DNA from: Gemmatimonadota bacterium | GTDB taxonomy: Bacteria; Gemmatimonadota; Gemmatimonadetes; Gemmatimonadales; Gemmatimonadaceae | Length of the DNA: 39,688 nt | Direction of reading: 5' to 3' | NCBI GenBank assembly: GCA_016874035.1 | Contig: VGVM01000021.1 | Span: 1 to 39,688 of the forward strand | Part shown: positions 10,458 through 22,839 of the stretch, one piece after another | How positions within the stretch are numbered: the first letter of the stretch is position 1 | How the letters are laid out: each line of letters starts with the position of its first letter | Position numbers and translations under genes: made by a program | The notes under the pieces: generated by a model | Databases searched by the model: none | Seen by the model: the letters and a program-made list of their open reading frames with translations, nothing else | Told to the model about the DNA's origin: nothing

Positions 10458-12742
10458 CAATCGTCGCCCCGCTGGAGATTCGCGAACCTCGCGACGAGCT
10501 TCTTGCGCCCGACCGCCTCATCGTCGAAGGTCACCGTCACCTTGGCGTCCCGGCCGCTGCCGCTGACTTCGTTGATCACGCCGCTGCCGAACCCGGAATG
10601 CTTGACCCGAGCGCCGACCCGAAGCTCCGCGCTGTCCTGCGACTCGTCTTCGATCTCGACCGCATGTTCCCGCCTCGGGTTCGGCCGCCACCGTGGGGTA
10701 TCGGAAGCCGGGGACGGATCCCAGTCACCGAAGTCGTCGTCGCGCCCAGGCCGTCCCCCGCCCCACGCACCCGCTCCGAATCCGAGGCCGATGCCACTCG
10801 ACGCCGAGCGAAGGCGCGCGGTCTGGCGCACCGCGAGATGCTCCTCCGCCTCGCGGGTGATGAAGCTGGAGAGCTTCGAGGCCATCAGCTCACCGTTTCG
10901 CCTGCGCGACCGCGCCCAGGTCAGGATCAGCGTCTGCTCCGCACGCGTGATCCCCACGTAGAACAGCCGGCGTTCCTCCTCGAGTTGTTCGGGGTTGTCG
11001 AACGCGCGACCCAGCGGGAACAGTCCATCCTCCATCCCGGCGATCACGACCATCGGGTACTCCAGTCCCTTGGCGGTGTGGATCGTCATGATCGTCACGG
11101 CGTCGCCGTCGGCCGACAACTGGTCGGCGGCCGCCACGAGCGTCGCCTTCTGGAGGAAGTGATCGAGCGGACGAAGGCCGACTTCGCCGCCATCGTCCAC
11201 CACGACATCGGTCGCGCCGCGGATCATCTCCTCGAGGTTCTCGAGCCGCTCGGCGCCATCCGGCTCGGCGCGGACCGCCTCGGCCATGCCGCTCGCCGAC
11301 ACCACTTCGGCGATCACGCGATCCACGGTCGCGTCGGAGGCCAGCTCGCGCAAGCGTCCGATCAGCGCGACGAACTCCGCCAGTGCCTTCCGGGTGGCGG
11401 GTCGCGCACCCGCGAGCACGGCGTCGTCCACGGCCGCGTCGAGCAGCGGCTTGTTCGCCTCGCGCGCACCGGCGAGCAGCATCTCAACCGTCGCGTCGCC
11501 CACGCCGCGCCGTGGCGCGCCGATCGCGCGGACAAATGCCTCGGCATCGGACGGATTCGCAATCAGGCGCAACCACGCCAGCACGTCCTTCACCTCGCGC
11601 CGATCGTAGAATCGCGTCGCGCCGATCAGCCGGTACGGGATCCCGTGGCGCCGGAACGCCTCCTCGAACGGCCGCGACTGCGCGTTGGTGCGGTACAGCA
11701 CGGCCACGTCGTTCAACTGTACCTCACCGCGGCCGCGCCGCGACGTGATCTCCTGCACCACGACTTCGGTCTCGTCGCGATCATCGAGCGCGCCGACCAG
11801 CGCCACCCGCTCACCAGCCGGCCGCGTGGCGCGCAGCGTCTTGCCGAGCCGATCGCGGTTCCGGCGGATCACCGCATTCGCAAGGTGCAGCACCTCGGGG
11901 ACCGAGCGATAGTTCTCCTCGAGCCGCACCGTGAGCGCGGACGGAAAGTCGCGGGTGAAATCGAGGATGTTCCGGATATCCGCGCCCCGCCAGCCGTAGA
12001 TCGCCTGGTCGTCGTCACCGACGGCACAGACATTCCCGGTGGGCGACGCCAGCAGCCGAATCAGTTCGTACTGCGTGCGGTTCGTGTCCTGGTACTCGTC
12101 CACCAGCAGGTGGCTGAAGCGCCGCTGATATCGCTCGCGCACGTCGGCGTTTGCCCGCAGCAGCGCCACCGGAAGCCAGAGCAGGTCATCGAACGTCACG
12201 GCGTTCGACGCCGCGAAGGCCGCGTCCCAGTCGTTGTAGATCGGGCCGACGGCCTTTTGCAGCGGCGTCAGCGCGAGCGACGCGTACTCGGACGGCGTCG
12301 TCATCGCATTCCGCGCGCGCGACACCTCGGAGAGGATGAGCCGGGGCGTGTACACCTTGGACGACACGCGATGCCGCTCCATCAGGCGCTTCACCACGGC
12401 GGTGGTGTCATCCTCGTCGTAGATCGTGAACTCCGGCGTCCGGCGCGCGAGCGCCGCGTTGGCCCGGAGTATGCGCGCGCAGATCGCGTGAAACGTGCCG
12501 ATCCACATGCCCCGCGGGTCTGCGCCGAGCGACGCGGCCACGCGTGCGCGCATCTCGCCGGCGGCCTTGTTCGTAAACGTGACCGCGAGGACCTGGTCCG
12601 CGCGGACTCCGCCGCGTTCGATCAGGCGGGCGATCCGCGCCGTCAGCACCCGTGTCTTGCCGGACCCCGCGCCAGCGAGCACGAGCAGCGGGCCGGTGCC
12701 GTGCTCCACCGCCTCACGTTGGGCGGGGTTGAGCGTCGTCAT
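10457..12742 (-). CDS. pcrA: UvrD/PcrA-type 3'-5' DNA helicase
   Basis: A 761-residue superfamily 1A helicase. Motifs in order are: Q motif LNPAQREAV; Walker A AGAGSGKT (residues 23-30); VTFTNKAAGEMRARV; DEYQDTNRTQ (Walker B); GDDDQAIYGWRGADI; the RLEENYRS motif; TIHTAKGLEYPMV; and VGITRAEQ. The C-terminus carries the Tudor-like RNA-polymerase-binding domain typical of PcrA/UvrD (VGARVKHSGFGSGVINEV). It probably acts in nucleotide-excision and mismatch repair and in removing stalled polymerase. I chose the ATG at 12740-12742, which overlaps the kinase stop (ATGA). The frame is open further upstream, but those residues only mirror the kinase gene. Confidence 0.94.
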   Translation of the reverse strand: MTTLNPAQREAVEHGTGPLLVLAGAGSGKTRVLTARIARLIERGGVRADQVLAVTFTNKAAGEMRARVAASLGADPRGMWIGTFHAICARILRANAALARRTPEFTIYDEDDTTAVVKRLMERHRVSSKVYTPRLILSEVSRARNAMTTPSEYASLALTPLQKAVGPIYNDWDAAFAASNAVTFDDLLWLPVALLRANADVRERYQRRFSHLLVDEYQDTNRTQYELIRLLASPTGNVCAVGDDDQAIYGWRGADIRNILDFTRDFPSALTVRLEENYRSVPEVLHLANAVIRRNRDRLGKTLRATRPAGERVALVGALDDRDETEVVVQEITSRRGRGEVQLNDVAVLYRTNAQSRPFEEAFRRHGIPYRLIGATRFYDRREVKDVLAWLRLIANPSDAEAFVRAIGAPRRGVGDATVEMLLAGAREANKPLLDAAVDDAVLAGARPATRKALAEFVALIGRLRELASDATVDRVIAEVVSASGMAEAVRAEPDGAERLENLEEMIRGATDVVVDDGGEVGLRPLDHFLQKATLVAAADQLSADGDAVTIMTIHTAKGLEYPMVVIAGMEDGLFPLGRAFDNPEQLEEERRLFYVGITRAEQTLILTWARSRRRNGELMASKLSSFITREAEEHLAVRQTARLRSASSGIGLGFGAGAWGGGRPGRDDDFGDWDPSPASDTPRWRPNPRREHAVEIEDESQDSAELRVGARVKHSGFGSGVINEVSGSGRDAKVTVTFDDEAVGRKKLVARFANLQRGDD

Positions 12743-13899
12743 CCGGGCAAAATAAGCTCGAACACGGCGCCCTTCTCGCTTGGCGCGAGCGCGAGGCGCC
12801 CGCCGTGCGACTCGGTCACGATCCTGCGCGCCAAGGGCAACCCGATCCCCCACCCGCGCTCCTTGGTCGAGAACCCGGCGGCGAATATCCGCTTGCGCAG
12901 GTCCTTGGGAATACCCGGCCCATTGTCCGCGATACGGATCATCGCGCCGCTCCCGGCCGCAGGGGCCACGGTCAGCTCGATCTGCCCGCCGCCGGCCGCC
13001 AAGGCATCCACCGCGTTCTTTACCAGCGACTCGATCGCCCACTCGAGCAGCACCCGGTCGCCCGGTACCGGCAGCGCGGTCTCCGGCCTGTTGACGCGGA
13101 TCGTGATCGCATTCGCCAGCGATGGCAGCCGCGCGCGGTAGTAGGCTGCGACCTGGTCCACGACGTCTGCGACATCGATCGCATCACGCTTCGCCGGCCG
13201 GCCAATGCGCTCGAACCTGTGCGCCACCCGTTCGAGGCGCTCGACGTCGCCCGCGATGTGCGGCACCGCGGTCTGGACCGTCTCGGCGGACGGGGCTTCA
13301 TTGAGCAGTTCCACCCAACCATGCAGGCTCGAGAGCGGTGTGCCCAGCTGATGCGCCGCTTCACGCGCCATCCCCGCCCAGACGCGCTCGCGTTCCGCGC
13401 GGCTCCGGACGCGGAGTGCCGCCGCCCCCGCGATAATCAGCGTGACCACCAGGGCAACCTGCAGCAGCGGGATCACCTGCAGCCCGCGCACCAGCGGCGT
13501 CTCGCCGAAGTGCACGAGCTGGAAGGTGGAGTCCCCGACGGGTGCGTTGTCTCGGTCCAATGTCGCCACATACGCGGCGACGCGCGGGTCGCCGACACCA
13601 TCGTGTTCGAACGGGAGGTTCGAAGCCGCCGTCGGCCGCCCCGCGGAATCCGTGACGATGATCGGAACGCCGAGGTCCTGTAGCGCGCCCAGGACGTCGA
13701 GGAGGACGTCCGCATCGGCCGGTGCGGGGCCGGCGCGGTCGGGCCGGCTCGCGGCCTGGTACACGCGCGAGAACACCTGGGCCGTGACGCGCGCCTCGCG
13801 ACTCAGCTCCGCGACCACGCGCTGGGTGTACCAGACGTACGAACCGAGGAGCGCGAGGAGCGCGGCGGCGACGAGTACGACGGGAGCGCTCCGCCGCAT
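12739..13899 (-). CDS. Membrane sensor histidine kinase
   Basis: A 386-residue kinase. The N-terminal transmembrane helix (about 5-25) and a second one (about 140-163) enclose a sensory domain of about 115 residues, probably periplasmic and of no recognised type. The H-box is EAAHQLGTPLSSLHGW with H183 as phospho-acceptor. The ATPase has an N-box around N295 (SLVKNAVDAL), G1 box DNGPG (325-329), the segment FSTKERGWGIGL and G2 around 349-353. There is no HAMP domain and no adjacent response regulator on this strand. It is followed by pcrA with a 4-bp overlap and starts 8 nt after serS, an odd place for a sensor. The signal is unknown. Confidence 0.9.
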   Translation of the reverse strand: MRRSAPVVLVAAALLALLGSYVWYTQRVVAELSREARVTAQVFSRVYQAASRPDRAGPAPADADVLLDVLGALQDLGVPIIVTDSAGRPTAASNLPFEHDGVGDPRVAAYVATLDRDNAPVGDSTFQLVHFGETPLVRGLQVIPLLQVALVVTLIIAGAAALRVRSRAERERVWAGMAREAAHQLGTPLSSLHGWVELLNEAPSAETVQTAVPHIAGDVERLERVAHRFERIGRPAKRDAIDVADVVDQVAAYYRARLPSLANAITIRVNRPETALPVPGDRVLLEWAIESLVKNAVDALAAGGGQIELTVAPAAGSGAMIRIADNGPGIPKDLRKRIFAAGFSTKERGWGIGLPLARRIVTESHGGRLALAPSEKGAVFELILPG

Positions 13900-15853: not shown

Positions 15854-15881
15854 TTGACTTCACTCGGAGGGTGCGTACACT
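15854..15881 (+). promoter_or_regulatory. Promoter of the Roadblock-CheY-manC operon
   Basis: TTGACT (15854-15859) and TACACT (15876-15881) are separated by 16 bp. The predicted start is near 15888, about 18 nt before the Roadblock ATG, whose ribosome-binding site is CGGAG at 15896-15900. The close divergent arrangement with the promoter at 15812-15840 would allow shared control from the 15841-15853 segment, though no operator is evident there. Confidence 0.6.
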
Positions 15882-15905
15882 TCGGCAACTTCTGCCGGAG
15901 TTCGC

Positions 15906-16259
15906 ATGCCAACGATTCGCGACCTCGCGGGCGCCATTCGACAGCGTGAAGGCGTTGAGGCCGCGGTCGTGCTTGGACGCGACGGGCTGCTCATTGACAG
16001 CCAGACCAGCGACACCGTGGACGCCGAGCACATCGCCGCCCATGTGCCGTCCATCATCCAGTTCGCCGACGAGTTCGGCAACGCGGCGCAGCGCGGGACG
16101 CTGCAGACGGCGATCCTGGAAATGGAGCGCGGACTCGCGGTCGTGTGCGCGCTGTCGTCGGATGCAGTGCTCCTCGTGCTCGTACAGCCGTCCGCAAACC
16201 TCGGCCAGTTGTTGTACGAGATTCGGCGCAACCGCGCGAACATCGCGGCGCTGGTGTAA
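15906..16259 (+). CDS. Roadblock/LC7 domain protein (MglB-like)
   Basis: A 117-residue single-domain protein resembling the Roadblock/LC7 fold: a first helix (IRDLAGAIRQREGVEAAVV), a GRDGLLIDSQ hairpin, the central helix HVPSIIQFADEFGNAA, the strand block LQTAILEMERGLAVVCALS, and the final helix LGQLLYEIRRNRANI. In bacteria such proteins, for example MglB, dimerise and act as regulators of small Ras-like GTPases that control polarity and motility. No GTPase gene is found in this window, so the partner is unknown or encoded elsewhere. It leads a plus-strand operon with a CheY-like receiver and sugar-nucleotide genes. Confidence 0.85.
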   Translation: MPTIRDLAGAIRQREGVEAAVVLGRDGLLIDSQTSDTVDAEHIAAHVPSIIQFADEFGNAAQRGTLQTAILEMERGLAVVCALSSDAVLLVLVQPSANLGQLLYEIRRNRANIAALV

Positions 16260-16309
16260 CTCCCGCCGGCCTGTCGCTTTCGCTCACGAATCACCCGCGA
16301 ACCGCCACC

Positions 16310-16681
16310 ATGAGCGCGCACGTGCTGGTCGCCGATGACGAGCCGCACATTGCGCGGATCATCCAGACAAAGCTGGAGCAAGGACCCTTCCGGGTGACGT
16401 TGGTGCATGATGGGACGGCGGCGCTCGCCGCGTTGGAGTCCTACCCCGATATCAAGCTCGTGCTCCTCGACGTCATGATGCCCGGGCTGAGCGGGCTCGA
16501 GGTGCTGGAGCGCATGCGCGCCGACTCCCGCTGGGCAAACGTCCCGGCGGTCATCCTCACGGCCGCCGGACACGATGAGCAACGCGACACGGCTGCTCGA
16601 CTCGGCGTGCAGGACTTCCTCACGAAGCCCTTCAGCCCCAAGCGCCTGTTCGCGCGTGTGCAGGAGCTGACCGGCGCGTGA
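16310..16681 (+). CDS. Stand-alone CheY-like response regulator receiver
   Basis: A 123-residue receiver domain with no output domain. The acidic pair D9/D10 (VADDEPH), phospho-acceptor D54 (VLLDVMMPG), T84 (VILTAAG) and K106 (FLTKPF) are all present, so it should be phosphorylatable. I chose the ATG at 16310-16312. The frame is open from 16145, but the earlier part is only a shadow of the Roadblock gene. The 50-nt gap before it lacks a strong ribosome-binding site. Its end overlaps the manC start (GTGA). It presumably acts by protein contact; the cognate kinase is unknown. The orphan kinase at 12739-13899 is the nearest candidate, but nothing shows that they pair. Confidence 0.93.
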   Translation: MSAHVLVADDEPHIARIIQTKLEQGPFRVTLVHDGTAALAALESYPDIKLVLLDVMMPGLSGLEVLERMRADSRWANVPAVILTAAGHDEQRDTAARLGVQDFLTKPFSPKRLFARVQELTGA

Positions 16682-17784
16682 GTGCACCGCGCGATCGGTG
16701 GGCGGTCGTACTCGCAGGCGGCGTCGGATCGCGGTTCTGGCCGCTGAGCACACCGGAACGGCCGAAGCAACTACTGCCGCTGATCTCGGCGAAGCCCATG
16801 CTCGAGGATACGCTCGAACGGCTGGCGCCGGTGGCGCCACTGGAGCGCACCCTCGTGCTCACGAACGCATCGCTGGCCGATGCCGTACGCAAGCTGGTGC
16901 CCACGCTGCCGGCCGGGAACGTCATTGCCGAGCCGCGCCCCGCGGGCACCGCCGCGGCGCTCACGTGGGCGGCCAACTTGATCGCCAAGCGCAGCGGCGG
17001 CGAGTCCCCGATGGTCTGCGTGCACGCCGATTGGGCGATCGGCGACGTTGACCTATTCCGCGCCACCCTGATCGCCGCTGCTGACGCCGCCGCGGCGAAC
17101 GAGGCGCTGATCACGGTCGGCATCGTGCCAAGCTGGCCCGACCCTGGGCTCGGATACATCGAACCCGGCGAGCCTGTACGCGACGTGTCGATCGGCACGT
17201 CGCCGGCTCCCCTTCGCCGTGTCGCCCGTTTCATCGAGAAACCGGACCGCGTGCGTGCGGAGGCGCTCGTGAACGGCGGTTGCCTGTGGAACTCCGGCAT
17301 TTTTGCGTGGCGCGCCGCCGATCTCTTGACCGAGATTCGCGCACACTGCCCGGAAGTCGCGCCAGCGCTCGATAAGCACGGCGACAACGCGGAGGGATTT
17401 TTCGCCGCCGCCCGTTCGATTGCGATTGATCACGGCGTGCTCGAGCGGAGCAAGCGCGTGATGGTCCTGCCCGGCCGTTTCCCGTGGAGTGACGTGGGCA
17501 CGTGGGCGGCGTTGCGCACGGTTCGTGTGCAGGATGCGTCTGGCAACGCGCCCGCCGGTGCCGTGGTGCTTCGCGATTCGTCGGCGAACGTCGTGCACGC
17601 CGAGGGGACCACGGTGGTGGGCTACGGCATTGAAGGCCTCGTGATCGTCTCACTGCCTGGAGTAACGCTGGTGACAACCGCCGAACGAGCTGCCGACCTC
17701 AAGAGCCTCCTCGAAGCGCTGCCGCCTGATGTGCGCGAGAAGATCGCGCGCGCCGTCGAGAGCGGGCCGGGACGCGCCGCATGA
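16678..17784 (+). CDS. manC: Mannose-1-phosphate guanylyltransferase
   Basis: A 368-residue nucleotidyltransferase that would make GDP-mannose from mannose-1-phosphate and GTP for glycan synthesis. The signature is LAGGVGSRFWPLSTPERPKQ (residues 12-31). Further family blocks are EPRPAGTAAALTWAA, GYIEPGEP, FIEKPDR, LWNSGIFAW and PWSDVGTWAAL. It is the single-domain type, with no C-terminal phosphomannose isomerase domain. The start is GTG, overlapping the receiver gene by 4 bp; the stop overlaps the next ATG (ATGA). Such enzymes supply polysaccharide, O-antigen or glycoprotein synthesis. No mannose-6-phosphate isomerase or phosphomannomutase is nearby. Confidence 0.93.
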   Translation: MSAPRDRWAVVLAGGVGSRFWPLSTPERPKQLLPLISAKPMLEDTLERLAPVAPLERTLVLTNASLADAVRKLVPTLPAGNVIAEPRPAGTAAALTWAANLIAKRSGGESPMVCVHADWAIGDVDLFRATLIAAADAAAANEALITVGIVPSWPDPGLGYIEPGEPVRDVSIGTSPAPLRRVARFIEKPDRVRAEALVNGGCLWNSGIFAWRAADLLTEIRAHCPEVAPALDKHGDNAEGFFAAARSIAIDHGVLERSKRVMVLPGRFPWSDVGTWAALRTVRVQDASGNAPAGAVVLRDSSANVVHAEGTTVVGYGIEGLVIVSLPGVTLVTTAERAADLKSLLEALPPDVREKIARAVESGPGRAA

Positions 17785-18986
17785 GTGAGCCGAACCGCGG
17801 GCTCGTCTGCTACGACGACGCGATTGCGCGTGCCATGGAACCGTTCGCGCACACGCGCCCGGTGTCGGAGCTGCGGGTGGGGGCGCTGCTTGTGCGTGAG
17901 CGATGGGCGCGCTTGCTCGCCCAGCAGGCGACCGGGTTCGTCGCTGCGCCGCACCTCGCCACGTTCGACGAGTTCGGCGCGCCGCCTGGCGTGCGTGGCG
18001 TGCTGAAAGCGGGCACCGTGCTGGCGAACTCGAGATGTGCACCGTGGCTGATGCCGGAAGTCGTGACCCTCGACCCGGGCGGCTGGGCGGAGGTTGACGG
18101 TCGCGTCGCGGCAGTGGCCCTCGCGCGCGACGTAGCAGTTCAAGAACTCGCTGACGGCCACCTTGCACTCGAATCGCTTGGAACCCGCAAGCACGCGATG
18201 TTCAAGGGCTGGTGGCTCGACCACGCGTGGGACATTGTGCGCCACTTGCCGGAAATGCTGCGGTCCGATGCCATGAGCCTTGCTGACGGCATCAAGGACG
18301 CTCCGCCGCCGCACCTGACCGTGCTCGGGGAGCACCGCGCCGCCGTGGCGCGCGGCGCGTATGTCGAGCCACACGTGGTGTTCGACACGACCGGCGGCGA
18401 TATCGTCGTGCTGCCGGGTGCCCGCATCAACGCGTTCACCCGGATCGCGGGCCCGGCCGTGATCGGTGATTCCACGATCGTCGCCGGCGGGCGTTTCGCC
18501 GCCGTCGCAATCGGCGAGCACTCGCGCGTCTGCGGCGAGATGAGCGTCACGGCGGTGCAAGGCTACGCGAACAAGGGGCACGACGGGTTCGTCGGCCATT
18601 CGGTGATCGGTCGGTGGGCCAACCTCGGCGCGCTCACGACGACCAGCAACCTCAAGAACAGCTACGGCAGCGTGCGGGTGGAGACGGCGACCGGCGAACA
18701 CGACACGGGCATGCAGTTCCTCGGGTCGTTGATCGGGGATCACGCAAAGACGGCGATCGGCACGCGCCTCATGACCGGGACGATTGTCGGCGCCGGCGCG
18801 AACGTCTTTGGCGACCGCTCGCCGGCGAAGCGCGTCCCGCCGTTCGCTTGGGGCGATCAGCCGCCATTCGCGCGATACGAGCGGGCCAAGTTCACCGAAG
18901 TCGCGCGGCACGTGATGAAGCGACGGGAAGTCACGTTGTCGCCGGGTAACCAGGCGACGCTCGAAGCTGCTTGGGACCTCGGCTGA
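17781..18986 (+). CDS. GlmU-family sugar-nucleotidyltransferase/acetyltransferase-like protein
   Basis: A 401-residue protein of the alternative GlmU-type family best known from Bacteroidota. The N-terminal part (about 1-180) has the family block RPVSELRVGALLVRERWARL and a conserved NSR (83-85), but not the canonical GxGTRM loop of GlmU. Residues about 185-350 form hexapeptide repeats of a left-handed beta helix, with the strongly conserved stretch from NKGHDGFVGHS through NLGALTTTSNLKN (264-293). By family it may make UDP-GlcNAc, but activity on another sugar is possible given its coupling to manC (ATGA overlap). It shares one base with the next gene (TGATG). Confidence 0.8.
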   Translation: MSEPNRGLVCYDDAIARAMEPFAHTRPVSELRVGALLVRERWARLLAQQATGFVAAPHLATFDEFGAPPGVRGVLKAGTVLANSRCAPWLMPEVVTLDPGGWAEVDGRVAAVALARDVAVQELADGHLALESLGTRKHAMFKGWWLDHAWDIVRHLPEMLRSDAMSLADGIKDAPPPHLTVLGEHRAAVARGAYVEPHVVFDTTGGDIVVLPGARINAFTRIAGPAVIGDSTIVAGGRFAAVAIGEHSRVCGEMSVTAVQGYANKGHDGFVGHSVIGRWANLGALTTTSNLKNSYGSVRVETATGEHDTGMQFLGSLIGDHAKTAIGTRLMTGTIVGAGANVFGDRSPAKRVPPFAWGDQPPFARYERAKFTEVARHVMKRREVTLSPGNQATLEAAWDLG

Positions 18987-19780
18987 TGCGCATCGTCGCG
19001 CTCGCAAGCGGCAGCAGCGGCAACGCCATCCTTGTTGACGACGGCACGACGCGCGTCCTAGTGGACTGCGGCATCGGCCCGCGCACGCTCGCCAAGGGGC
19101 TCAAGGCGGCCGGCGTCGCGCCGGAAAGCGTGCAGGCCATCCTCGTCACGCACGAGCACATTGACCATGTGCGCGGAATCCCGCAGGCGGTGGCCAAGTG
19201 GGGATGGACCGTGATCGGGACCGCCGGAACGGTCCGGCGGCTGCCGACCGAGGTTCGACCAGCGGCGAAGACGGTGCGTGAACACGTTCGCATCGGCGAC
19301 CTCGACATCGCGCTCGTGCCGGTTTCGCACGACGCCGCCGAACCGGCGGCATATGCCTTCACCTCCCGCACCAGTGGGCAGCGTGCGGGCGTGGCCCACG
19401 ACCTGGGCGAACCGTCGGACAAGCTCATCCGCGCCTTCCGCGGTGTGGAACTGCTCTGCATCGAGGCGAATCACGACGCGGACATGTTGCGCGACGGACC
19501 CTACCCCGCCTTCCTGAAAGACCGTGTGGCCAGCGCAACCGGCCACTTGAGTAATGCACAATCGGCGGCCTTCATTGACGCCGTCGGGACTGCCGAACTC
19601 CGCGCGGTGCTGCTCCTTCACCTAAGCGAGACGAACAACACGCCGGAGATCGCGTGCTCCGCGACGAAGCGAGGCGTTACGCGCCTGGCGCGACGCGCGA
19701 CGCTCGCCGCGGCGGTCCGGCGGGCGCCGAGCGCGCCGATCGGGCGAACCGCATCCGGTCAGCTCGCGCTGTCCCTCTGA
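18986..19780 (+). CDS. Metallo-beta-lactamase-fold hydrolase (YycJ/WalJ-like)
   Basis: A 264-residue MBL-fold protein. The metal-site signature is THEHIDH (55-61), followed by further likely ligands in VSHDAAEP, GVAHDLGEPS and EANHD, and HLSETNN near the end. The opening VALASGSSGNAILVDDG is characteristic of the YycJ/WalJ group, whose members are implicated in nuclease or phosphodiesterase activity and in cell-wall or mismatch-repair-linked phenotypes in Firmicutes; the role here is not known. I chose the ATG at 18986-18988, which shares its A with the previous stop; an upstream start at 18971 would only mirror the preceding gene. Confidence 0.88.
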   Translation: MRIVALASGSSGNAILVDDGTTRVLVDCGIGPRTLAKGLKAAGVAPESVQAILVTHEHIDHVRGIPQAVAKWGWTVIGTAGTVRRLPTEVRPAAKTVREHVRIGDLDIALVPVSHDAAEPAAYAFTSRTSGQRAGVAHDLGEPSDKLIRAFRGVELLCIEANHDADMLRDGPYPAFLKDRVASATGHLSNAQSAAFIDAVGTAELRAVLLLHLSETNNTPEIACSATKRGVTRLARRATLAAAVRRAPSAPIGRTASGQLALSL

Positions 19781-19808: not shown

Positions 19809-21836
19809 CTACCGCAGCGCCTGCGCCCGCATCAGCTCCACTTGGGCTCGGAGCTGGCCCGCCGAGAGCCGGTCGCGTTGCCACACAGCCGAAAACAGCT
19901 CGTTCCCGGTCCGCAGCGGGATCGCGATATCCGAGCGAAGGGCGTTGATGTCCTCGAGGATGACGGACTGCTGCGAGACCTCAATCGCCTCGGGAGCGTT
20001 GACGCGTACGGTGCGCGGCCGCATGGTACGCGACGGGCTCAGCGGGAGCCGGACGCGCGCGCCAGCCGCTTGCGAGAACTCGCTCGCGCGGACGAAGAAG
20101 CCGACCTCCATCGGCCCGAACCAGCGCGCGACCTCGCCCAGCGCCCCGATGTCGCCGTGCATGAAATGGCCGGCGGTGAGCGAGACGGTCGTGCCCATCC
20201 GTGGCGTGCGAACGCGGATATTCCCGAGCGCGACGGAGCGGTTGATCTTGCCGAAGGCCCGACCGAAGGCCGCGCCCATGAAGCCGACATTGATCCTGCC
20301 GTTCGGCAGCGCGAAGTCGGCTTCCACTGAGCCGCCGACCTCGCCATGACCGAACCGGCCCAGGCTGGCTTGGGCGAATCCGCTGGTCCCGGCGGGAAAC
20401 ACGCCCAGGTCGAGCGGCCGCGCAAGCTGCACGAGCAGTCGGTCCGCATTCGCAACGCGAATACTGTCGGGGAACCCGACGCTGCGGTACAGCTTGATGC
20501 TTCGCCGCCCGGTCAGCATGAGACCGCGTCCCAGGCGCAGCGTCGCTTCCGGGAGCGCCGCGACGCGAGAGTCCGCTATCCCGACTTCCGTAAGCAGGGT
20601 GGACTCCAGGCGCGGCACCACCGTGACATCGAGGCGCGCGCGGGCACGATTCAACCAGCGCGCGGGCGGAATCGGCGACCGCGCCGCCGCATCGCGGCCT
20701 CCCTCGATCCGCAGCGACTCGGCGAATGCGCCTCCTTCGCGCTGCCCGGCCGTGAACGCAGCCCAATCGGCCAGCCGGACGCCGAGCGCGAGCACCGTGG
20801 CCTCATGCCGCCGCACGAGGAGTCGCACTTCGGTGACTGCTGCGGGTGCGTGCTGCTGCACCGCGGCGAGCACAGCGCCGATCGCCGACGCTTCCTCATA
20901 CACCCACACCCAGTTCTCGTAGCCGACCTCCAGCAAGCCGCCGCTCACGACCGCGACCGAGACGTTCTCGAGGCCGAGGTCCACCAGGCTCCGCGCAAGT
21001 GACTCGACCGAGCGCGTGGCCGACGGTGAGCGACGGGCGGCGTTGCCCGGACGCACTGCGGGTGTCGTTGCCGTCGTCCTCGGGGTCGCGGGCAAGCCGA
21101 AGCGCAGCGTGAAGTTCGTCACCGTCCCGGTTTCCCCGCGCGAGACGATGTCTACGGCGGGCATTACTCCGTACCTCGCGGCGGTCGCCGCGAACGGCGT
21201 CAGTCGCACGCCGAACGACGACTGTCGCGCATCGTTCTCACCGATCACCGTCAGCCAATCGCAGATGCCCACCGATGCGCCGCCGAACGCCCCGCTCAAC
21301 AGGTGTCCGTCCGCGCCGTAGCCCCCCGTGAGGCGCACGCGGTCGGCGAACGTCTTCGTTGCGACGATGTAGCGCGACTCGAAGTTCGGCGCCGCTCCGC
21401 CCATGTCGGTCGCGCCAAGCGCGATCGCAGGGCGCGTACCGGTCTCGCGCAAGGCAAGGAACTGTGCGCCCGCCGAGATATCGCGAAGGATCGACTCCGT
21501 ATCCGACAGGTATCGCGGCGGGCCGGCGGCCGAGCCGCGCGCCGTCAGCGTAAGCCGGGGAAGAAACTCGAACGCCACGAAGCCGTTCCCCTGCGGCCGC
21601 ATGTCGCGATTGGTGAGGTCGCGCCTGGCGTTGTTGTAGCTCAGCGCCACGGACCTCTGCCTCGGTTCGACCGCCGCAGGAACCTCGAAGAGCCCGGGCG
21701 TTCCGTTGAGTGAGAGCGTGGCGTCGGCTGGCGCCGTGACGTTCCTGGCAATCGGCGCTCGGCAGGCATCCGGGGCGCTCGTGAGCAGTCCGGCGGAGAC
21801 CGCGACGGCTGCTGACAACGTGCTGGCGAGGATCAT
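19809..21836 (-). CDS. YjbH-like outer-membrane exopolysaccharide-associated protein
   Basis: A 675-residue exported protein; residues 1 to about 24 form a signal peptide. It resembles the YjbH/WbfB group of outer-membrane proteins linked to exopolysaccharide production: GTPGLFEVPAA near the start, then FLPRLTLTARG, RDISAGAQFLALRE, AIALGATDMGG, SRYIVATKTFADRVRLTGGYG and SVGICDWLTVIGE. The rest alternates short amphipathic strands, as expected of a large beta barrel, with a central Ala/Thr/Arg-rich linker (about 260-290). The TAGAAT box is only 6 nt before the ATG, so the mRNA may be leaderless. It lies beside the manC/GlmU-like operon (convergent), which supports a role in surface glycan. Confidence 0.7.
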   Translation of the reverse strand: MILASTLSAAVAVSAGLLTSAPDACRAPIARNVTAPADATLSLNGTPGLFEVPAAVEPRQRSVALSYNNARRDLTNRDMRPQGNGFVAFEFLPRLTLTARGSAAGPPRYLSDTESILRDISAGAQFLALRETGTRPAIALGATDMGGAAPNFESRYIVATKTFADRVRLTGGYGADGHLLSGAFGGASVGICDWLTVIGENDARQSSFGVRLTPFAATAARYGVMPAVDIVSRGETGTVTNFTLRFGLPATPRTTATTPAVRPGNAARRSPSATRSVESLARSLVDLGLENVSVAVVSGGLLEVGYENWVWVYEEASAIGAVLAAVQQHAPAAVTEVRLLVRRHEATVLALGVRLADWAAFTAGQREGGAFAESLRIEGGRDAAARSPIPPARWLNRARARLDVTVVPRLESTLLTEVGIADSRVAALPEATLRLGRGLMLTGRRSIKLYRSVGFPDSIRVANADRLLVQLARPLDLGVFPAGTSGFAQASLGRFGHGEVGGSVEADFALPNGRINVGFMGAAFGRAFGKINRSVALGNIRVRTPRMGTTVSLTAGHFMHGDIGALGEVARWFGPMEVGFFVRASEFSQAAGARVRLPLSPSRTMRPRTVRVNAPEAIEVSQQSVILEDINALRSDIAIPLRTGNELFSAVWQRDRLSAGQLRAQVELMRAQALR

Positions 21837-21842
21837 GGCAAC

Positions 21843-21848
21843 ATTCTA
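21843..21848 (-). promoter_or_regulatory. -10 box placing the yjbH-like gene as leaderless
   Basis: TAGAAT on the minus strand is separated by exactly 6 nt (GTTGCC) from the ATG at 21834-21836. A start at or next to the A of ATG is therefore expected. No ribosome-binding site fits, and no good -35 box is seen. Confidence 0.5.
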
Positions 21849-21900
21849 GCCGGGCGTCGGCGTGTCCGGCGCTCCCGTGGACGAACCTCCTGCAGCCGTG

Positions 21901-21906
21901 TAGATA
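21901..21906 (+). promoter_or_regulatory. -10 box placing the Asp-box lipoprotein gene as leaderless
   Basis: TAGATA is separated by exactly 6 nt (GTCGCA) from the ATG at 21913. A weak -35 (TGGACG at 21878-21883) lies 17 bp upstream. No Shine-Dalgarno sequence is present. The spacing matches that of the divergent yjbH-like gene. Confidence 0.4.
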
Positions 21907-21912
21907 GTCGCA

Positions 21913-22839
21913 ATGGTGCCCAGGCCGTTGGCTCACGCGCGGGCGATCACGACGCCAGCCTTGGCGATCGTCACCGCCGCGCTGGCGGCCGTGTCGTGCC
22001 GGGGAGCCGTCACGGCGGAACAGGACATGTACGATGGACCCCTGCTCCGGATGGCAATGGAAACGGGGGTCGTCGGGCGCTTCGCGACGGCCGTGCGTGA
22101 CGATCACCTCGCTGTGGCATGGTTCGGCGTCGAGCGCGCCGACACGGCCGTGTTCGTGTCGCGCAGCCTCGACGGCGGCAACTCGTTCTCGGCAGCGCTG
22201 CGGGTGAGCCCGGTCGGTGAGCCGACGCCCGCCGACCTCGAGAACGGACCGCGAGTCGAGCTGATCCTCGACCCGGACGGATTCGCGCAGCCGTTCCTCG
22301 CGTGGACGCGCGCCCGGGGCGACGCAGCAGCCATCGTGTGGTCCTATACCATCGACGGGACCACGTACTCGGCGCCCGCGGCTGTTCGCGGAAGCAGCGG
22401 GCGCGGAAGACCAACGCTCCACGTGATTGCACGCGACACCGGCGAGCGCGTGGTGGCCATGTGGAGCATCCCGGGCAACGGAGCGGAACAGCCGAGGGAG
22501 TACTGGCTCGGTTCGACCGCAGGGCAGATCGCCGCCAAGGCGTTCGGCGATTCAATGGCGGCGGCGCTTGCGATCGCACAACTCGCCTCGCAAGCGGCGG
22601 CACCGCCGGCCGTAAGTGACGTGCCCGTCCTCGTCTGGACGGACTCCACGCACTCCCCTCCGTCGGTCATGATGCAGCCGGACCGAACTGGCGGCGGAGT
22701 GGGGAGTGAGCGCACGAGCGCCGTCTCGCTCGGGCCCGGCGCGTATCCCGTTGTTGCGAGGCCGTCACCGGGCCCGGTAATCGTGTGGGTGAGCGGCCGC
22801 AGTCCCGCGGGAGAGATCAACGTCATTCGCGTTCGCTGA
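21913..22839 (+). CDS. Predicted lipoprotein with Asp-box (sialidase-like) motif
   Basis: A 308-residue exported protein. The signal peptide ends at the lipobox LAAVSC (Cys29). One clear Asp-box, SxDxGxxF, is seen at S85-F92 (SLDGGNSF) within a strand pattern LAVAWFGV...AVFVSRSL that resembles sialidase-type propeller blades. Later segments (FLAWTRARGDAAAIVWSY, VVAMWSIPG, PVLVWTDS, PVIVWVSGRSP) repeat the same strand style, so a propeller of four to six blades is plausible. No sialidase catalytic residues can be identified, so an enzyme activity is not claimed. It is divergent from the yjbH-like gene and convergent with groEL. Confidence 0.72.
   Translation: MVPRPLAHARAITTPALAIVTAALAAVSCRGAVTAEQDMYDGPLLRMAMETGVVGRFATAVRDDHLAVAWFGVERADTAVFVSRSLDGGNSFSAALRVSPVGEPTPADLENGPRVELILDPDGFAQPFLAWTRARGDAAAIVWSYTIDGTTYSAPAAVRGSSGRGRPTLHVIARDTGERVVAMWSIPGNGAEQPREYWLGSTAGQIAAKAFGDSMAAALAIAQLASQAAAPPAVSDVPVLVWTDSTHSPPSVMMQPDRTGGGVGSERTSAVSLGPGAYPVVARPSPGPVIVWVSGRSPAGEINVIRVR

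What the first reader, a model, noticed from the sequence alone, without database searches (positions are those of the whole stretch)
15854..19780. Roadblock/LC7 and CheY-like receiver translationally tied to manC, a GlmU-family gene and an MBL-fold hydrolase
Seen: one promoter, then five plus-strand genes, the last four joined by GTGA, ATGA and TGATG overlaps. Known: bacterial Roadblock proteins regulate Ras-like GTPases, and CheY-like receivers act by protein contact. Here both precede sugar-nucleotide enzymes, and neither an MglA-type GTPase nor an output domain is present. Inference: a phosphorylation- or GTPase-linked switch that controls the location or rate of surface glycan synthesis, with the YjbH-like protein next door as the export end. 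I know of no described system with this order.
Basis: partly seen in the sequence, partly recalled or inferred. Interest (0 to 1): 0.62.

Follow-up and report, generated by a model that had tools for sequence, protein, structure and literature searches.

The report
Roadblock–receiver sugar operon in Gemmatimonadota
A conserved gene cluster that makes cell-envelope sugar building blocks also carries two small signalling proteins; one of them evolves in step with a polarity GTPase encoded elsewhere in the genome rather than with the sugar enzymes beside it, so the two are probably not a single sugar-making switch.

Summary
One promoter and five plus-strand genes are there (Roadblock ROB, receiver REC, ManC-type GDP-mannose pyrophosphorylase, "alternative" GlmU, MBL-fold hydrolase). 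The order is conserved across ~30 genera of Gemmatimonadaceae, and partly across the class. (1) The genome does encode an MglA GTPase, beside its MglB, on another contig. (2) ROB and REC come and go independently: all four combinations occur upstream of ManC, and changes are uncorrelated on a 109-genome tree, so they are not an obligate two-part switch. (3) ROB distances correlate with MglA (partial r 0.48-0.69) and MglB (0.49-0.52), as well as or better than MglB with MglA, but not with ManC or GlmU. (4) A same-genus genome that lost MglA keeps the promoter and all four downstream genes but only a ROB remnant. (5) YjbH is beside the operon in none of 90 relatives. Best reading: an ordinary envelope-precursor operon carrying an accessory Roadblock subunit of the cell's MglB-MglA system (works like Myxococcus MglC, not an MglC by its defining surfaces), plus a separate phosphorylation-competent receiver of unknown target. 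New variant of a known kind; no direct contact is shown.

The parts
15854..15881 (+). operon promoter TTGACT-N16-TACACT
   Evidence: conserved cTTGACT element at similar position in most of 41 relatives, above shuffles; also kept in three ROB-less loci
15906..16259 (+). ROB: stand-alone Roadblock/LC7 protein, 117 aa
   Evidence: PF03259 47.7 bits; model pLDDT 92.5, Roadblock fold, Z 18.4 to 9jue; 46-82% identical orthologs
16310..16681 (+). REC: single-domain CheY/PhoB-like receiver, 123 aa, no output domain
   Evidence: PF00072 89.7 bits; D10, E11, D54, T84, K106 invariant in 32 orthologs
16678..17784 (+). ManC-type mannose-1-phosphate guanylyltransferase, no isomerase domain
   Evidence: PF00483; TIGR01479 224 bits over its first 352 of 467 positions only; PDB 2x5s E 1.6e-51
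17781..18986 (+). alternative bacterial GlmU (UDP-GlcNAc synthesis)
   Evidence: TIGR03991 309 bits, cut-off 225.3; no canonical GlmU over cut-off in the genome; one copy in each of 10 genomes tested
18986..19780 (+). MBL-fold hydrolase, subfamily unresolved
   Evidence: PF12706 66.4 bits; only generic MBL hits in NCBIfam and PDB

Best explanation
This is the envelope-precursor operon of class Gemmatimonadetes (GDP-mannose and UDP-GlcNAc synthesis plus an MBL hydrolase), transcribed from one conserved promoter, with two separable signalling genes at its front. ROB most likely acts as an extra Roadblock subunit of the cell's MglB-MglA Ras-like GTPase system, which is encoded elsewhere: a homodimer that contacts MglB and/or MglA and tunes or places the GTPase, much as MglC does in Myxococcus. 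REC is an independent, phosphorylation-competent single-domain receiver made together with ManC; its kinase and target are unknown. Shown: operon layout, promoter, conservation, independent loss, a separate MglB-MglA pair, and rate co-variation of ROB with MglA and MglB. Inferred: physical contact of ROB with MglA/MglB, and that sharing the operon ties ROB dosage to envelope growth.
For: Conserved block SerS-lipoprotein divergent from ROB-(REC)-ManC-GlmU-MBL in the family loci and in other families, while the neighbour after MBL is not conserved. MglB-MglA pair in the same genome (L073:9888-11063): MglA E 3e-84 to Myxococcus MglA, MglB by NF052242 (below its cut-off) and PF03259. Mirror-tree: ROB-MglA partial r 0.69 (33 genomes), 0.68 (38), 0.67 (26, one per genus), 0.48 (22, fast lineages out); ROB-MglB 0.49-0.52; known pair MglB-MglA 0.34-0.42; ROB-ManC -0.15 to 0.14. 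In a 32-genome control set ROB against lipoprotein, HK, MBL, ManC, GlmU and UvrD runs -0.15 to 0.12. The signal is in both the GTPase core and the C-terminal part of MglA. MglA1 was found in all 71 ROB+ genomes on the tree. G219 (same genus) has lost MglA and keeps a ROB remnant with start, internal deletion and early stop behind an intact promoter, followed by REC, ManC, GlmU and MBL. The ROB profile scores MglC (E 3e-5) far above MglB (0.4-0.5).
Against: No complex could be modelled and nothing was tested at the bench. Independent pairs for ROB and MglA1 are few: 2.7 same way, 0 opposite, 3.3 no difference, p 0.25. Genus g7 and families f4/f5 keep MglA without ROB, and three ROB+ draft genomes show no MglA1. 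ROB also co-varies with RecR (r 0.20-0.45), the gene next to mglBA, and with SerS in one set (0.32). Permutation p-values are floored at 0.002 and the control genes are an imperfect stand-in for a species tree. In the family, genomes lacking both ROB and MglA1 are small (1.8-2.4 Mb), so joint loss may be streamlining. REC shows a weak link to ROB (partial r 0.31, p 0.02), leaving some room for a ROB-REC unit.
Confidence: 0.5

Rival explanations
1. One reading: ROB and REC act together, by phosphorylation or a GTPase, on ManC/GlmU to control where or how fast surface glycan is made.
For: Same operon; REC and ManC overlap in 30 of 35 loci; order old and widespread; weak REC-ROB co-variation, partial r 0.31, p 0.022.
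Against: All four ROB/REC combinations exist (49, 22, 21, 17 of 109) and changes are uncorrelated on the tree. ROB-ManC and REC-ManC partial r about 0.1 and 0.04, not significant. Sugar genes persist where either or both are missing.
Confidence: 0.15
2. Co-transcribed passengers: ROB and REC share the operon only for growth-linked expression and have no functional tie to the sugar enzymes or to each other; ROB need not act on MglA.
For: Repeated independent loss of each; the wider block with SerS, lipoprotein, HK and UvrD is also syntenic without an obvious common pathway.
Against: Specific co-variation of ROB with MglA and MglB; 4-nt overlap of REC with ManC kept in most genomes.
Confidence: 0.25
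3. MglC-RomR analogue: ROB bridges MglB and REC, so that phosphorylated REC steers the MglA GTPase.
For: In Myxococcus the Roadblock protein MglC bridges MglB and the receiver-containing RomR (PMC10329633, PMC12719032). ROB scores closer to MglC than to MglB. ROB-REC partial r 0.31 and REC-MglA 0.26.
Against: RomR binds MglC through its C-terminal helix (PMC12719032), which REC lacks. Of the MglC RomR-binding residues K104/R106/R110 only R110 has an equivalent (R107), and FDI reads R-D-L. ROB is kept in 22 genomes without REC beside it, and REC in 21 without ROB.
Confidence: 0.1

Closest known systems
Myxococcus xanthus MglC (Roadblock adaptor of the MglA polarity module)
   Same: Small stand-alone Roadblock protein in a genome with a separate MglB-MglA pair; profile match to 7ct3 at E 3e-5 while MglB is 0.4-0.5; co-varies with MglA and MglB.
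   Different: FDI and most of the KRR surface not kept; sits in a sugar-nucleotide operon; no RomR-type partner with a C-terminal helix.
Orphan MglB-family proteins (PMC4316618)
   Same: That survey counted 328 MglB homologs not encoded near an MglA, none characterised at that date; ROB fits that class.
   Different: Here a conserved genomic setting and a co-evolutionary link to one MglA are shown.
Streptomyces conservons (CvnA-D)
   Same: CvnB5 (3leq) is among the nearest solved relatives, E 6e-13.
   Different: Conservons join a histidine kinase, a Roadblock protein, a protein of unknown function and a GTPase in one operon (PMC4316618); kinase and GTPase are not in this operon.
Alternative GlmU (TIGR03991) and GDP-mannose pyrophosphorylase ManC
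   Same: Ordinary members by score.
   Different: Nothing unusual except the neighbours.

Membership tests
Roadblock/LC7 | PF03259 over gathering score and Roadblock fold | tested here: met
   47.7 bits against 23; Z 18.4, 2.0 A over 117 residues to 9jue
MglC | F25-D26-I28 surface that binds MglB | tested here: not met
   aligned residues R25, D26, L28; only D26 is identical, and it is invariant in 37 orthologs
MglC | K104-R106-R110 surface that binds RomR | tested here: not met
   aligned Q101, L103, R107; only R107 kept
MglC | binds MglB and couples it to a receiver protein | not testable with these tools
   no complex prediction or binding assay available
MglB (GTPase-activating partner of MglA) | encoded next to its MglA | tested here: not met
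   MglA lies on another contig beside a different Roadblock protein; ROB and that MglB are not alignable by BLASTP
MglB (GTPase-activating partner of MglA) | stimulates GTP hydrolysis by MglA | not testable with these tools
   needs a biochemical assay
Single-domain response regulator | receiver domain with intact phosphorylation site and no output domain | tested here: met
   PF00072 over nearly all of 123 aa; acceptor and active-site residues invariant
RomR | C-terminal helix that binds MglC | tested here: not met
   REC ends at the receiver; orthologs have only short unconserved tails
alt_bact_glmU TIGR03991 | score over curated cut-off | tested here: met
   309 against 225.3 bits
GMP_PMI TIGR01479 | score over cut-off, including isomerase domain | tested here: not met
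   224 against 373 bits; only the pyrophosphorylase part matched

The most novel reading that the evidence does not exclude
A third Roadblock subunit places or times envelope-precursor synthesis through the MglA GTPase, so that a bacterial Ras-like polarity system directly controls cell-wall and glycan precursor supply.
Probability: 0.12. Interest if true: 0.75.

Novelty: new variant of a known kind. Interest (0 to 1): 0.45.

Why it matters
Hundreds of orphan Roadblock proteins have no assigned partner. This one has a conserved address in an essential-looking operon and a candidate partner, MglA, named by co-evolution against control genes. That makes a simple binding test possible in a phylum for which no studied polarity system was found in the literature searched.

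Tried and rejected
Orphan histidine kinase upstream (12739-13899) as the cognate kinase of REC: it is missing in several REC+ loci and kept in REC- loci, so not obligate. YjbH as export end: no hit in 90 loci with room. Type IV pili as the reason for joint ROB/MglA loss: PilT is present in the family genomes that lost both. Co-presence of ROB and MglA1 as statistical proof: too few independent pairs. First tabulation of REC absences was wrong because frames were read stop to stop; corrected. Literature: no paper held joins Roadblock with mannose-1-phosphate guanylyltransferase; the papers found on MglA and Gemmatimonadota do no more than list its presence.

Full report
What is there. The window lies in a genome of family Gemmatimonadaceae: nearly all named relatives of ROB are Gemmatimonadota assembled from metagenomes (the taxon is inferred from them). 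Domain assignments are firm. The promoter is not a chance match: nearly the same element precedes ROB in most of 41 genomes, and it also precedes REC in three loci where ROB is gone.

Conservation. In 40 loci from about 30 genera of the family, ROB is always followed by ManC; 35 have REC between them; GlmU and MBL follow in nearly all. The divergent neighbours (lipoprotein-like gene, SerS, usually a histidine kinase, UvrD) are also kept, so synteny is wider than the five genes; but it stops after MBL, where YjbH occurs in none of 90 loci. In other families of the order and class the same block recurs with pieces missing. ManC-GlmU-MBL is the constant core there. In family f10, outside the class, ManC lies without GlmU in the flank read.

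ROB and REC are separable. Among 109 genomes the upstream state is ROB+REC+ in 49, ROB only in 22, REC only in 21, neither in 17. On a ManC+GlmU tree ROB needs at least 7 changes and REC 11; in six independent contrasts they practically never change together. This tells against an obligate ROB-REC unit.

The GTPase exists. The same genome has an MglB-like protein and an MglA of 225 aa next to recR (L073:9287-11063). ROB is a different, unalignable Roadblock protein whose profile lies nearer archaeal Roadblock proteins, CvnB5 and MglC than MglB. Its predicted fold is a complete Roadblock domain.

ROB evolves with MglA and MglB. Over 33-38 genomes, after removing what SerS, GlmU, UvrD, RecR and ManC explain, ROB distances correlate with MglA at 0.68-0.69 and with MglB at 0.51-0.52, against 0.40-0.42 for the known MglB-MglA pair; one genome per genus gives 0.67 and 0.49; dropping the fastest lineages gives 0.48 and 0.50. 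Controls: lipoprotein, HK, MBL, ManC, GlmU and UvrD run between -0.15 and 0.12. Exceptions to note are RecR (0.20-0.45) and SerS (0.32 in one set). The signal is present in both the GTPase core (0.57) and the C-terminal part of MglA (0.59). ML distances in a first run gave the same picture.

Co-loss. All 71 ROB+ genomes on the tree have MglA1; of 38 without ROB, 22 lack it and 16 keep it. In the wider family three ROB+ drafts show no MglA1. The contrast test is not significant. The clearest single case is G219, of the same genus: no MglA, and behind an intact promoter a ROB remnant that keeps the start, lacks an internal stretch, matches residues 44-69 and then stops, followed by REC, ManC, GlmU and MBL. 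Thus the sugar genes do not need ROB.

The sugar part is ordinary. GlmU belongs to the alternative bacterial GlmU family, and no canonical GlmU reaches its cut-off in this genome, so this gene is probably the cell's UDP-GlcNAc source and likely essential (inference). ManC is the pyrophosphorylase without the isomerase domain.

Mechanism. Established: in Myxococcus MglC is a Roadblock dimer that bridges MglB and RomR (PMC7949163, PMC10329633, PMC12719032). Inference: ROB plays a comparable adaptor part for MglB-MglA here, without being an MglC by its defining surfaces. REC has an intact phosphorylation site, usually overlaps ManC by 4 nt, and outlasts ROB in several lineages; its target is open, and no co-variation with ManC was found.

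Noticed in passing
L073:10386-11063: MglA of this family and its order is about 225-229 aa and matches canonical MglA only to residue 159-160; other families of the class have about 196 aa. This may be a lineage-specific C-terminal part of a Ras-like GTPase.
   Followed up: partly
window 12739-13899 (-): Orphan histidine kinase in a conserved UvrD-HK-SerS-lipoprotein block divergent from the operon; its distances correlate with MglA (partial r 0.33) but not with MglB or ROB.
   Followed up: no
L043: In G040 ManC is followed directly by MBL; GlmU is missing from the operon, although a relative of the same genus (L069) has it.
   Followed up: no
other genomes, e.g. G025:C6:64562-65849: A second Roadblock-MglA pair (MglA about 60% identical) occurs in many genomes of the class; no second MglA was found in the window's genome.
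   Followed up: partly
L215 and G232:C2:160687-160950: ROB variants with an insertion (G031) or an internal deletion (G232), perhaps decaying copies.
   Followed up: partly
window 19809-22839: The YjbH-like protein and the sialidase-like gene downstream are nearly private to this genome at this place; the second occurs at 48% identity in one close relative only.
   Followed up: partly
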